Positions 15,322-19,344 of a DNA stretch of 20,248 nt are shown here, one piece after another. Made by a program: the position numbers and the translations under genes. The notes beneath the pieces were generated by a model that was not told the origin of the DNA, ran no database searches, and was given only the letters and a program-made list of their open reading frames with translations. Position 1 is the first letter of the stretch; each line of letters starts with the position of its first letter. The DNA is from a virus: positions 1 to 20,248 of IMG/VR virus record IMGVR_UViG_3300005617_000065; one strand, given 5' to 3'.

Positions 15322-17273
15322 GCCGCATCGCTGTCGGTCTGGATCTCGAAGCCGCCCCGTACATCAACGAGGCCGGCAAGGTCCTGACGACCACCAAGGC
15401 CATGAACGCCGAGATGGGCGCCCTGGACCGCGAGGTGGACAAGGTCGACCGGGACATGGCCGAGCTGGCCGCCACGACCGCCGCGGCCAAGCATGAGGTC
15501 GACGACCTGGGCGACAAGGCCCGTGGTTCGGCCGCTGATCTCTCGTTGCTGGACGCCCGGATCAAGGCCACGAAGGCGTCGGTGCGCGAGCTCGGGCTCG
15601 AGTTCGCCCGCACCGGCGACAAGGCCGCCGGCACGAACCTGAGCAAGGAACGTTCGTTGCTGGGCCGACTGGAGAAGCTGCGCAAGGAACTGTCCGATCT
15701 GGACGGTTCGGCGAGCGCCGTGAAACTGCCGACCGGCAGCGCCAGTGTCCGTTCCGGTGCGATCTCCGCGCCTGAAACCAGCGGCGCCATGCCGGCGCTC
15801 GTCGGTGGGCTGATCGTGGCCGTCATCGCTGCGGCCCCGACCATCGGTGCGGTCATCGGTGGTGCCATCGCTGGCGCGACCGGCACTGCCGCGATGGCCG
15901 CCGGTATCGCCGCGGCGAGCCGTGATCCGCGGGTGCGGGCGGCGGCCAGCGACGTCGGGGAGACGATCTTCACCGAGATCGACCGGGCCGGTGTCGCGTT
16001 CGTCGAGCCGACCATCAAGGCGCTGCACACGCTCGATTCGGCGCTGGTGGCCATGCACGTACCCGAGGCGTTGGCCAAGCTGGCGCCGACGGTGGAGGTC
16101 ATCGCCAAGGGCTTCGCCGCGTTCGGCACCAGCATCATGCCCGGGGTGAACAAGGCCCTGGACCGGATGGGACCGTTCGCCGACGTGGCCGCGGTCGGTC
16201 TCGCCGACATGGGCGAGGCCTTCGGTGAGTTCATCGACGACGTCACCGCGTCCAAGGGCACGGTCGAGGGTCTGGCCACGCTGTTCGCTCTGGTCAACGG
16301 CACCGTCCGCCTGTTGGGCGACTCAATCCATTTCCTGTCCGACGCCTATCAGGAAGAGGTCAAGCTCCAGCGCATCCTGCTCGCCGAGTTGGAGGGCATC
16401 GCGATCGCCACCGGTCACTTCGACCTGGCGGCAAAGCTGCACGAGTACGGCGTCGGCATCGACAACATGGTGAAGGGACTCAAAGAGGGCTCCGATTCGC
16501 AGCAGAATTTCGTCAGCCACATCGACGTGACGAACCTCGCGATCAAGCGCCAGCACGACTACATCGAGGCGCTGCTGAGGATTTACGACCAATGGTTCGG
16601 CATCGCCATGAGCCTGGACCAGGCCCAACTGGCGGTGAAGCAGGGCATGCTCGATTTCCAGGAAACGCTGAAGAAGAACGGCCGGCACTGGGAGGACAAC
16701 ACCAGGGCCGGGCTGGACAACCAGGCGGGGCTACTCCGCATGATCCAGACGATTAACGACTTCCGACAGCGCGAGATCGAGGCCGGCCATGACGTGGCCG
16801 CCACCAACGCCAAGTACGACGCGCAGGTGCAGGCGCTACTTAACCTGGCCAAGCAGGCCGGGGCGACGAAGGAGCAACTCGACCACCTCAAGGGCGAGTA
16901 CGAGATCCACATCGTCATGCCGGGGCTGATCGCCGCGACCAATGCGTTGGCGAACTTGGCCAAATCCGGGCTCGCCCAGTTCTTTGGCGGCCACCGCGCC
17001 GCCGGTGGTCCGGTCCTGGCCGGCGTGCCGTACACGATCAACGAGCATGGCAACGAGACGGTGACCTTCCCCGCCTCCGGCACGGTGCACCCGGCGTCGC
17101 TGTCACCCGCGCAGCCATGGTCGGGTGGGGCGTCAGGCGGTGCACGGTATGTGATCGAGAACAACATCACACTGATCGACCCGATGACTGGTCAGAAGAC
17201 CCGCGGAATGCTCATCACCGACGCGCGCAATCGGGGTAAGCCAGCTGACGTCGTCGCGGCGGCGTATCCGTGA
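15312..17273 (+). CDS. Tape measure protein
   Basis: 653 aa, GTG start preceded by GGGAGG. It is long, helical and Ala-rich. Charged coiled-coil segments lie at ~30-135 (MGALDREVDKVDRDMAELAA, ERSLLGRLEKLRKELSDLDG). A hydrophobic stretch follows at ~161-202 (PALVGGLIVAVIAAAPTIG), the kind thought to help DNA pass the membrane. Helices continue to ~555. The end has GGPVLAGVPYTINEHGNE, typical of tape measure C-termini. Placed right after the chaperones, as always. The ruler relation of about 0.15 nm per residue predicts a tail near 98 nm. No lysozyme or peptidase domain is evident, so wall degradation would need another protein. Its stop overlaps the next GTG. Confidence 0.92.
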   Translation: MPGRRIAVGLDLEAAPYINEAGKVLTTTKAMNAEMGALDREVDKVDRDMAELAATTAAAKHEVDDLGDKARGSAADLSLLDARIKATKASVRELGLEFARTGDKAAGTNLSKERSLLGRLEKLRKELSDLDGSASAVKLPTGSASVRSGAISAPETSGAMPALVGGLIVAVIAAAPTIGAVIGGAIAGATGTAAMAAGIAAASRDPRVRAAASDVGETIFTEIDRAGVAFVEPTIKALHTLDSALVAMHVPEALAKLAPTVEVIAKGFAAFGTSIMPGVNKALDRMGPFADVAAVGLADMGEAFGEFIDDVTASKGTVEGLATLFALVNGTVRLLGDSIHFLSDAYQEEVKLQRILLAELEGIAIATGHFDLAAKLHEYGVGIDNMVKGLKEGSDSQQNFVSHIDVTNLAIKRQHDYIEALLRIYDQWFGIAMSLDQAQLAVKQGMLDFQETLKKNGRHWEDNTRAGLDNQAGLLRMIQTINDFRQREIEAGHDVAATNAKYDAQVQALLNLAKQAGATKEQLDHLKGEYEIHIVMPGLIAATNALANLAKSGLAQFFGGHRAAGGPVLAGVPYTINEHGNETVTFPASGTVHPASLSPAQPWSGGASGGARYVIENNITLIDPMTGQKTRGMLITDARNRGKPADVVAAAYP

Positions 17274-18649
17274 CGTGGGAGAACCGGATCGTCTTCGAGG
17301 TGTCCTCGGCCGAACCGGACGCCGAAGTGCCGGTGTGGGTGGACCTTTCGCTGCGCATCCTCGACGACCTGCAGGCCGTGCGGTTGCAGATCGGCCGACA
17401 GAACGACCTGGACCAGTCCGAGCCGGCCCGCGTGGATCTGCTGCTCAACAACGCCGACGACGCGCTGACCTTCGGCAACCTGTCCTCGCCGTATGCGGCG
17501 TGGTGGGGGCCGGGCCGTAAATGCCGACTGCGCGACACGGTGTCCGGTGCCCGGCTGACCCTGTTCACCGGCTACATCGAAGTACCGGACGAGGCGGTCA
17601 TCACCACCGGCATCGAGGCCCGGGTTGCCATCTCGGCCGTGGACCGGCTGGGGCGACTGGCGGACTCGCCGCAGTTCGTGTCGACGTTGACCGAGCACAT
17701 CCGCTTCTCGGGTGGCACGGCGCTGAAGGCGTACTGGCCGCTCAACGACGCGAGTGGGGCGACCACGGGCGCCTCACTCGTGGCCGGTATCGGGCCGCTG
17801 CTTCAGGTCGTCAACTACAACGACACCCCGCGCCAGAACCAACTGCAGTGGGGGCAACGCACCGGTCCGATCGGTGACGACGCTTCCTACGTCCAGATGA
17901 ACCCGACCGCTGCCGTCATCGCCGCCGGCACCGGCTTCCCGCGAATCGTGCGCCGCGACTTCAACGTGCCGCTCAACGCCGGCGAGGTCGTAGCCATCGC
18001 GGGCTGGGTCTACATGCCGGTGGGCAGCGTGAGCGCCCAGGTGCTCGTCGCGCACGCGAACGGTTCCGCCGACCCGACGTTCCAGTTCACCGCCAACGTC
18101 GCAACCGGCTGGACCCTGCTGGTCTCAACGTCCGCCGGCATCGTCTCGCCCACACTGCCAGCCACCAAGACCGACAGCTGGCAGATGTTCGGCGGGCTGC
18201 TGAACGTCACGTCGGGGGCCATCACCTTCTTCGTCGGCGACCAGACCACGACGGCCGCTCTCGGTGGCGCGAGTACCGGCACATTTCAAGAAGTGGCCCT
18301 CGACGGTGAGAACGGCTACTCGTTCGGCAGCGTCCAGTTCTACGCCGGCAACCCCGGAACGCTGACGCGGGCTTTCTTCACCGACCAGTACCAGATGGGG
18401 CTGCTCGGCCTGGACCGTCAGCCCACCGGCGACCGGATCCGCACCATCGCCCGCTACGCCGGTCTGCCCAATGTGGACGTCGCCAACACCATCGACACCG
18501 GCGCCAGCATCATGCAGCGCGCCGAACTGGCCGGCAAGGACCCGCTGACCGCGATGCGTGAGGCCGAGACCACCGAGCAGGGCCTGCTGAGTACCGACGG
18601 CGACGGACGCTTGGTCTTCCGCGACAGGCGAAGTTTGTACAACGTCTGA
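17270..18649 (+). CDS. Minor tail protein with LamG-like domain; N-terminal part of a tail hub
   Basis: 459 aa, GTGA overlap with the tape measure stop. Residues 1 to ~145 look like the tube-facing beta domain (WVDLSLRILDDLQAVRLQIG, RLTLFTGYIEVPDEAVITTG). Residues ~150-380 look like an inserted LamG/concanavalin-type jelly roll, opening ALKAYWPLNDASGATTG and including VVAIAGWVYMPVGSVSAQVL; such domains often bind glycans. Residues ~382-459 begin a hub domain (GDRIRTIARYAGLPNVDV, LTAMREAETTEQGLLSTDGD) but stop at GRLVFRDRRSLYNV. As I recall them, actinophage homologues continue through a further domain, which appears instead in the gene starting at 19345. The gene may therefore be split. Confidence 0.76.
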   Translation: MTWENRIVFEVSSAEPDAEVPVWVDLSLRILDDLQAVRLQIGRQNDLDQSEPARVDLLLNNADDALTFGNLSSPYAAWWGPGRKCRLRDTVSGARLTLFTGYIEVPDEAVITTGIEARVAISAVDRLGRLADSPQFVSTLTEHIRFSGGTALKAYWPLNDASGATTGASLVAGIGPLLQVVNYNDTPRQNQLQWGQRTGPIGDDASYVQMNPTAAVIAAGTGFPRIVRRDFNVPLNAGEVVAIAGWVYMPVGSVSAQVLVAHANGSADPTFQFTANVATGWTLLVSTSAGIVSPTLPATKTDSWQMFGGLLNVTSGAITFFVGDQTTTAALGGASTGTFQEVALDGENGYSFGSVQFYAGNPGTLTRAFFTDQYQMGLLGLDRQPTGDRIRTIARYAGLPNVDVANTIDTGASIMQRAELAGKDPLTAMREAETTEQGLLSTDGDGRLVFRDRRSLYNV

Positions 18650-18659
18650 TCGTGATCCC

Positions 18660-18739
18660 TTGCCAAGCCCTGCCGTACCTTGCCCAACCGAGCCCGGCCA
18701 AGCCACGCCCTGCCTAGCCAAACCGTGCCTGGACCGGCC
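18660..18739. repeat. Degenerate pentanucleotide array (NN[G/A]CC on +, GGYNN on -)
   Basis: From 18660 to 18729 the sequence parses into 14 unbroken five-base units of the form NN(G/A)CC: TTGCC, AAGCC, CTGCC, GTACC and so on. Eleven have GCC and three ACC. Two further, less exact units (TGGAC, CGGCC) reach 18739. The first two bases of each unit vary freely while the last three are fixed. It lies in the only real intergenic gap of the tail region (18650-18768), between the two minor tail parts. It is not a CRISPR array, as there are no long repeats or spacers. Function unknown. Confidence 0.85.
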
Positions 18740-18768
18740 CATCGTACTGCGCACCTAGGAGACGCCCC

Positions 18769-19344
18769 GTGCAGGGATACACCTACGCCGAGTGCCTGAA
18801 GGCCATGCAGGTCGCCGGCCCCAACCTGACCGCTTCCACAACGCCAACATCGTTGCTGGACGCCACCGGCAAGGTGACGCTTAAGCCGGACTTCTTCGAC
18901 CGCCGAGGCAAGGGCGTACTGATCGAGTTCGCGGGCCAGCTCGGCAACATCGCCACAACACCGGGCACGCTGACCCTCGACGTCCGCATGGGCCCGACGT
19001 CCAACATCATCGTGTTCAACGGTGGGGCGATGCAGCTCAGCAGCACGGTGCACACAACGCTGCCGGTCGTCGGGCGAATTCTTCTGACCTGCCGCGCCGT
19101 GGGAAACGGCACCACGGCCAACCTGATCGGTCAGGGCACCATCACGTCGCAATGCTTGTCACTGACTGCGGTCGCGGACTCGGCAACGACGCCGGCGACC
19201 CTGCTCATGCCCAACACCGTGCCCACCGTCGGGACCGGCTTCGACTCCACCGTCGCGATGACCGTCGATCTGTTCGGCACGTTCAGTTTGAACAACGCCA
19301 ACGCTGTCCAGATCCACCAGTACTGGCTGTACGAGGTCAACTAG
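18769..19344 (+). CDS. Putative beta-sandwich tail-associated protein
   Basis: 191 aa, GTG start with AGGAGA and a six-base spacer. It has long alternating strands: GKVTLKPDFFDRRGKGVLIE, GTLTLDVRMGPTSNIIVFNG, VHTTLPVVGRILLTCRAV, NLIGQGTITSQCLSLTA, VAMTVDLFGTFSLNNANAVQ, IHQYWLYEVN. This suits a jelly-roll structural protein, a type I recall in actinophage tail regions. It lies between two parts of what looks like one hub gene, after the pentanucleotide array, so it may be an inserted cassette encoding a host-recognition or decoration subunit. Name and function are inferred only. Confidence 0.68.
   Translation: MQGYTYAECLKAMQVAGPNLTASTTPTSLLDATGKVTLKPDFFDRRGKGVLIEFAGQLGNIATTPGTLTLDVRMGPTSNIIVFNGGAMQLSSTVHTTLPVVGRILLTCRAVGNGTTANLIGQGTITSQCLSLTAVADSATTPATLLMPNTVPTVGTGFDSTVAMTVDLFGTFSLNNANAVQIHQYWLYEVN

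What the first reader, a model, noticed from the sequence alone, without database searches (positions are those of the whole stretch)
18660..18739. Degenerate five-base periodic array in the tail region
Fourteen consecutive NN(G/A)CC units, plus two imperfect ones, fill most of the only sizeable gap among tail genes. Fixed last three bases with free first two rule out simple recent slippage of one unit and imply selection or a templated origin. On the other strand it reads as GGY repeated every five bases, which could bind a protein in regular array, form G-rich structure, or act as a recombination or insertion hotspot. I cannot attach it to a named element.
Basis: seen in the sequence. Interest (0 to 1): 0.62.

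Follow-up and report, generated by a model that had tools for sequence, protein, structure and literature searches.

The report
Stand-alone VIPR guide RNA in actinophage
The odd five-base repeat in this phage's tail region reads as a guide-RNA gene of the newly described VIPR type (a relative of CRISPR) that carries no VIPR protein of its own, and its decoded guide points at the end of the matching tail gene in related, competing phages.

Summary
In detail: 14 perfect NNRCC units at 18660-18729 (chance runs reach 5). On the minus strand it reads (GGY NN)14. Such arrays with random NN are abundant in viral contigs, rare in cellular genomes (where RCCNN runs are ordinary microsatellites), and lie beside one protein family (phrog_4652; homolog in 86 of 108 array loci). 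That family matches the solved 'SUSP1 Vipr protein' (E=1.8e-43) and models as a CRISPR-type RAMP. It is the VIPR system of a 2026 preprint (PMC13142463): GGY/NN RNAs whose NN letters guide Vipr to DNA under a one-base-skip rule. So the array is a vrRNA gene, antisense to the tail genes. Two things go beyond that preprint's main text. (1) Neither the window nor its 49.9-kb, apparently complete relative encodes Vipr: the guide stands alone, in a ~107-nt insert absent from a 79%-identical relative. (2) Decoded with a 1-base skip only, the guide matches the 3' end of the adjacent tail gene's homologs in other phages (22, 21, 19, 19 of 28 letters) better than its own copy (17). An unrelated vipr-less phage shows the same design 3' of its capsid gene. 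Likely role: exclusion of rival alleles using a Vipr supplied in trans. Expression, Vipr source and a perfect target are not shown.

The parts
18660..18729 (-). guide part of the vrRNA-like gene: 14 GGY-NN units; guide dinucleotides 5'->3' AC TT TA AG GT TT CG TC TG AA AC AG TT AA
   Evidence: sequence; GGY/NN architecture as in VIPR vrRNAs; identical in the relative
18730..18740 (-). two imperfect units at the 5' end of the RNA (GGGCC, GGTCC+A)
   Evidence: sequence
18650..18756 (.). insert of about 107 nt between two tail genes, absent from the 79%-identical relative L249; 18650-18753 has no difference from relative G051 although the surrounding 3.25 kb differ at 4.5% of sites
18741..18746 (-). 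TACGAT, possible -10 box just upstream of the array; weak, no -35 found
   Evidence: sequence reading; the promoter scan found nothing
18590..18659 (-). place where a 3' tail of the RNA would lie; no terminator found, weakly folded
18605..18645 (-). the phage's own diverged copy of the target site (17 of 28 guide letters match; codons GRLVFRDRRSLYN-V at the end of the tail gene)
17270..18649 (+). tail-region protein (phrog_5313, unknown function) whose homologs' 3' ends are the decoded target
18769..19344 (+). downstream gene of the tail region, no PHROG match

Best explanation
The array is the guide part of a small RNA gene of the VIPR type (vrRNA), read from the minus strand. GGY triplets (GGC/GGT) are the scaffold that Vipr subunits (ancestral RAMP proteins) hold; the NN dinucleotides are the guide, pairing with DNA as NN-skip-NN-skip. 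This phage carries the guide without a vipr gene, so it most likely uses a Vipr supplied by a resident prophage, the host or a co-infecting phage. The guide is aimed at the 3' end of the tail gene in related phages; the phage's own copy, next to the guide, is diverged and matches less well. Binding would silence the rival's late genes, as VIPR is reported to do, and the guide would travel with an immune allele, like free-standing homing endonucleases in marker exclusion. Shown here: array, conservation, family link, lack of vipr, skip-1 match to homologous tail genes. Inferred: transcription, Vipr in trans, repression, exclusion.
For: GGY/NN arrays with random NN: high entropy in 225 of 261 arrays of the viral scan, 11 of 130 in 257 Gb of cellular genomes. 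phrog_4652 lies within about 5 kb in 86 of 108 viral array loci and in none of 61 low-entropy cellular microsatellite loci. Its profile hits PDB 36pp 'SUSP1 Vipr protein' at E=1.8e-43; the model (pLDDT 93) matches Csm3/Cas7 RAMPs. The preprint reports vrRNAs of 9-16 YNNGG repeats and the 1-nt skip rule by binding, GFP and phage assays. Decoding the window: best match in phage relatives is 6/28 mismatches at skip 1, 12 at skips 0, 2 and 3; 400 shuffles of the NN order at skip 1 reach 8 once. Hits at 6, 7, 9, 9 and 11 mismatches (L261, L260, L258, L259, L249) all fall on the homologous 3' end, with skips on codon position 3. Independent case L036: vipr-less, array 3' of the capsid gene; best skip-1 match is the 3' end and stop codon of the capsid gene in relative L440 (6/28; 500 shuffles reach 7 once; other skips 12). 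Among 20 arrays in loci without vipr, 5 have a partial skip-1 match within 300 nt at p<=0.05 (1 expected); none for skips 2 and 3, one for skip 0, and no excess among 187 arrays in vipr loci. No vipr in the window or in G051. Zero changes in the array against 145 in 3254 nt.
Against: No transcript, promoter, terminator or structured tail was demonstrated. No perfect target was found: an exact 20-letter scan of the viral contigs gave 0 hits. The 18-letter pattern with two units left open, chosen after seeing L261, hit only L261. Tail-gene homologs in Micromonosporaceae genomes do not match, and the scan of 396 genomes was at the level of its reversed control. The near-self test was exploratory and on few loci. 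In L036 the own copy matches almost as well (7/28 mismatches) as the relative (6/28). The host is unknown; Vipr was found in only 4 of 101 genomes of one candidate host family.
Confidence: 0.72

Rival explanations
1. Anti-VIPR decoy: the stand-alone GGY/NN RNA occupies Vipr of a resident prophage or competitor, as solitary CRISPR repeats (Racr) do against CRISPR-Cas.
For: No vipr gene in the phage; the array alone would suffice to bind Vipr.
Against: A decoy needs no particular NN letters, yet the letters match the homologous tail gene at skip 1 and none changed between two diverged phages.
Confidence: 0.12
2. Self-regulation: the RNA, with a Vipr in trans, tunes the phage's own tail gene next door through a partial match.
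For: Partial match (17/28) 84 nt from the start of the array, among the best skip-1 hits in the phage's own sequence.
Against: Relatives match better than self (22 and 21 of 28).
Confidence: 0.08
3. Relic: a vrRNA gene left behind after loss of its vipr gene, no longer functional.
For: No vipr; no recognisable promoter or terminator.
Against: All 14 triplets intact and no change in 104 nt where about 4.6 are expected at the regional rate; present in two diverged phages.
Confidence: 0.06
4. Five-base array bound by a TRAP-like ring protein or acting as G-rich/R-loop DNA, unrelated to guiding.
For: TRAP sites also have a triplet plus 2-nt spacing; 49 of 66 array clusters with well-defined neighbours have GGY on the mRNA strand of both flanking genes.
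Against: No TRAP gene in 50 array-bearing records; the linked protein is Vipr; G-rich DNA would not need Y in position 3; the guide decodes to the neighbouring gene family.
Confidence: 0.02

Closest known systems
VIPR systems (Vipr + vrRNA; PMC13142463, bioRxiv 2026), type II of phage SUSP1 and P. fulva prophage
   Same: alternating GGY/NN repeats, 9-16 units, phage-borne, guide read with a 1-nt skip, targets in competing mobile elements, skip bases on codon wobble positions
   Different: no vipr or vap gene found here; single RNA inserted antisense between late genes; target is a homolog of the adjacent gene
Solitary CRISPR repeats / mini-arrays in phages (Racr anti-CRISPRs, phage-borne CRISPR mini-arrays; from own knowledge)
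   Same: guide-type RNA in a phage that lacks the effector protein
   Different: GGY/NN scaffold instead of CRISPR repeat-spacer; letters match a phage gene
Free-standing homing endonucleases in intronless homing / marker exclusion (e.g. SegF of T4; from own knowledge)
   Same: element sits beside the phage's own resistant allele of the gene it attacks in relatives
   Different: RNA guide, presumably repression and not cleavage; no endonuclease gene
TRAP-binding leaders ((G/U)AG NN)11 (from own knowledge)
   Same: triplet + 2-nt spacer, about 11 units
   Different: different triplet, different linked protein, antisense position; no TRAP gene found

Membership tests
VIPR vrRNA | 9-16 tandem GGY/NN units with hypervariable NN | tested here: met
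   14 units, NN entropy 3.03 bits
VIPR vrRNA | guide matches DNA with a 1-nt skip and not with 0, 2 or 3 | tested here: met
   6/28 mismatches at skip 1 against 12 at the others in tail-gene relatives; shuffles. Partial match only, no perfect target
VIPR vrRNA | expressed as a small RNA of about 100 nt with a structured 3' tail | tested here: inconclusive
   no terminator or promoter by scan; weak tail fold; expression not testable
VIPR vrRNA | RNA is bound by Vipr | not testable with these tools
   needs a binding experiment
complete VIPR system | vipr gene in the locus | tested here: not met
   no hit in the window or the 49.9-kb relative
complete VIPR system | vap accessory gene next to vipr | tested here: not met
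   no vipr locus; candidate companion phrog_15946 absent from G051
TRAP-regulated leader | TRAP (PF02081) encoded by array-bearing phages | tested here: not met
   0 of 50 records
simple microsatellite | identical units | tested here: not met

The most novel reading that the evidence does not exclude
There is a class of solitary, vipr-less vrRNA genes in phages, inserted antisense just 3' of structural genes and guided against the 3' end of the homologous gene in rival phages, so that guide and immune allele travel together: an RNA-guided counterpart of homing-endonuclease marker exclusion that borrows another element's Vipr.
Probability: 0.45. Interest if true: 0.78.

Novelty: new variant of a known kind. 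Interest (0 to 1): 0.64.

Why it matters
VIPR is proposed as the ancestor of CRISPR guides. A guide without its protein would mean that phages share or steal Vipr in trans, that the skip code can be read from sequence alone in unrelated (actinobacterial) phages, and that guides are placed next to the gene they attack in rivals, which gives a simple way to predict targets and a possible route by which guides arise. It is also an independent test of the preprint's decoding rule.

Tried and rejected
TRAP-like ring protein: no PF02081 in 50 array-bearing records. Coding repeat: a five-base period shifts the codon frame at every unit, and annotators of near-identical phages disagree on ORFs there. 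Microsatellite: NN random. Known RNA family: none in Rfam. Exact target in viral contigs: none. Target in 396 genomes drawn from the phylum of a Micromonospora genome: level of the reversed control, and the eight matches inspected do not look like tail genes. Target in tail-gene homologs of Micromonosporaceae and in phage pMLP1: none. Early literature searches on pentanucleotide repeats gave nothing. BLASTN of the region against named phages: no match.

Full report
Observation. The window is an uncultivated virus record of 20,248 bases, 67% G+C, with terminase, portal, head and tail genes on the + strand; a distant named relative is Micromonospora phage pMLP1 (32% identity in one tail protein). 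Between ORF 17270-18649 and ORF 18769-19344 lie 14 consecutive NNRCC units (18660-18729). Chance runs reach 5.

What kind of thing. 225 of 261 arrays there have near-random NN, often several per contig. The same search, with 11 units, in 257 Gb of cellular genomes returned mainly homogeneous microsatellites: 11 of 130 arrays had high NN entropy. Most viral arrays carry GGY on the strand of the flanking genes' mRNA: 49 clusters with both neighbours in that sense, 3 with both opposite, 14 mixed. The window is of the opposite type. In cluster F mycobacteriophages (Saal, Donkeykong, ByChance and others) the arrays differ by single NN letters and by gain or loss of whole units or larger blocks.

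The linked protein. PHROG scans of the neighbouring genes picked out one family of unknown function, phrog_4652: 29 of 73 upstream and 23 of 83 downstream neighbours. The family's profile matches PDB 36pp, 'SUSP1 Vipr protein' (E=1.8e-43), and its model (pLDDT 93) matches Csm3-type RAMPs. This led to the preprint on VIPR, Viral Interference Programmable Repeat (PMC13142463): Vipr proteins bind vrRNAs of alternating GGY and NN, and the NN letters guide them to DNA with one base skipped between dinucleotides, repressing competing phages. The window's array is thus the guide part of a vrRNA gene on the minus strand.

A guide without its protein. Neither the window nor its closest relative encodes Vipr. 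That relative (49,914 bp) has ends that overlap by 126 nt, though the overlap stops 11 nt short of the contig end, so it looks complete; it has an integrase, RecE and RecT-like genes. The array lies in about 107 nt that a 79%-identical relative lacks. Across 3254 aligned bases the two phages differ at 145 sites but at none in 18650-18753; about 4.6 would be expected, so the guide letters appear conserved, though local exchange could do the same.

Decoding. [quoted passage not shown] The adjacent tail protein ends in GRLVFRDRRSLYNV and its relatives in GNLVFKDRRTLYNI and the like. By letters, the best skip-1 matches in relatives are 6, 7, 9 and 9 mismatches of 28 (L261, L260, L258, L259), all at the 3' end of the homologous gene; L251 has 8 in a different place; the own gene has 11. 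Skips 0, 2 and 3 give 12 at best. Shuffling the order of the dinucleotides 400 times gave 8 once and otherwise 9 or more. No perfect target was found. A later scan with two units left open hit only L261 in the whole viral collection, but that pattern was chosen after seeing L261. Tail homologs in Micromonosporaceae genomes do not match.

Second case. L036 is another vipr-less phage record with a 14-unit array antisense to and just 3' of its major head gene, followed by a strong hairpin. Its guide best matches, at skip 1 only, the 3' end and stop codon of the capsid gene in relatives L440 (6/28 mismatches) and L441 (9/28), and its own copy at 7/28; 500 shuffles reached 7 once. Over 20 arrays in loci without vipr, 5 have a partial skip-1 match within 300 nt at p<=0.05 (1 expected) and 4 at p<=0.017, against 1, 0 and 0 at p<=0.05 for skips 0, 2 and 3; 187 arrays in vipr loci show no excess (5 at p<=0.05, 9.3 expected). 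One of the 20 (L118) proved later to have a vipr fragment at the contig end; it is not among the five. This test was thought of after seeing the window and needs repeating on fresh data.

Mechanism. Most likely the RNA is made from the minus strand, loaded into a Vipr supplied by another element, and represses the tail genes of related phages, while the own allele escapes. Vipr genes occur in 4 of 101 genomes of Micromonosporaceae, a plausible but unproven host family, so supply in trans is possible. Rivals are a decoy against others' Vipr, self-regulation, or a relic. The match of the guide letters to the homologous gene and their conservation argue against decoy and relic; the better match to relatives argues against self-regulation. 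Transcription, Vipr binding and repression are inferred.

Standing. It works like a vrRNA and meets the sequence features of one; it is not a complete VIPR system, because the vipr gene was looked for and not found. The kind is known since 2026; the solitary form placed beside the gene it targets in others is, as far as the preprint's main text says, a new variant (the supplement was not readable here; the preprint does mention satellites that encode their own vrRNAs).

Noticed in passing
L265:2256-2999 (-) and L265:2985-3250; L264, L266-L274: Cluster F mycobacteriophages (Saal gp51 and relatives) encode an unannotated Vipr (phrog_4652, E=3.8e-58) with a multi-block GGY/NN array directly upstream; some annotators call small ORFs inside the array. 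Array length and NN letters differ between near-identical phages.
   Followed up: partly
L321, L329, L331, L375, L297, L305, L383: A sister class of arrays with TCCNN (GGANN on the other strand) lies beside the same protein family: a related scaffold triplet.
   Followed up: partly
L110, L117, L062, L082: Multi-block arrays are joined by a fixed one-base slip, GCC-T-GCC (GGC-A-GGC), in 60 of 61 cases with a one-base spacer, after runs of about 8-13 units; probably borders between successive vrRNAs.
   Followed up: partly
neighbours of arrays, e.g. L402 (G035:C1:13768-14163): phrog_15946 (unknown function) is a frequent second neighbour (11 of 73 upstream, 6 of 83 downstream): a candidate accessory (vap) protein.
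   Followed up: no
L114:4601-5049: A low-G+C contig has arrays of ACCNN blocks of 10-13 units joined by CATTAGCC, a different block border.
   Followed up: no
L074, L035, L064, L023, L060: Further arrays in records without a detectable vipr; L064 and L023 have terminator-like hairpins after the array, and L074, L035 and L064 have partial skip-1 matches within 300 nt.
   Followed up: partly
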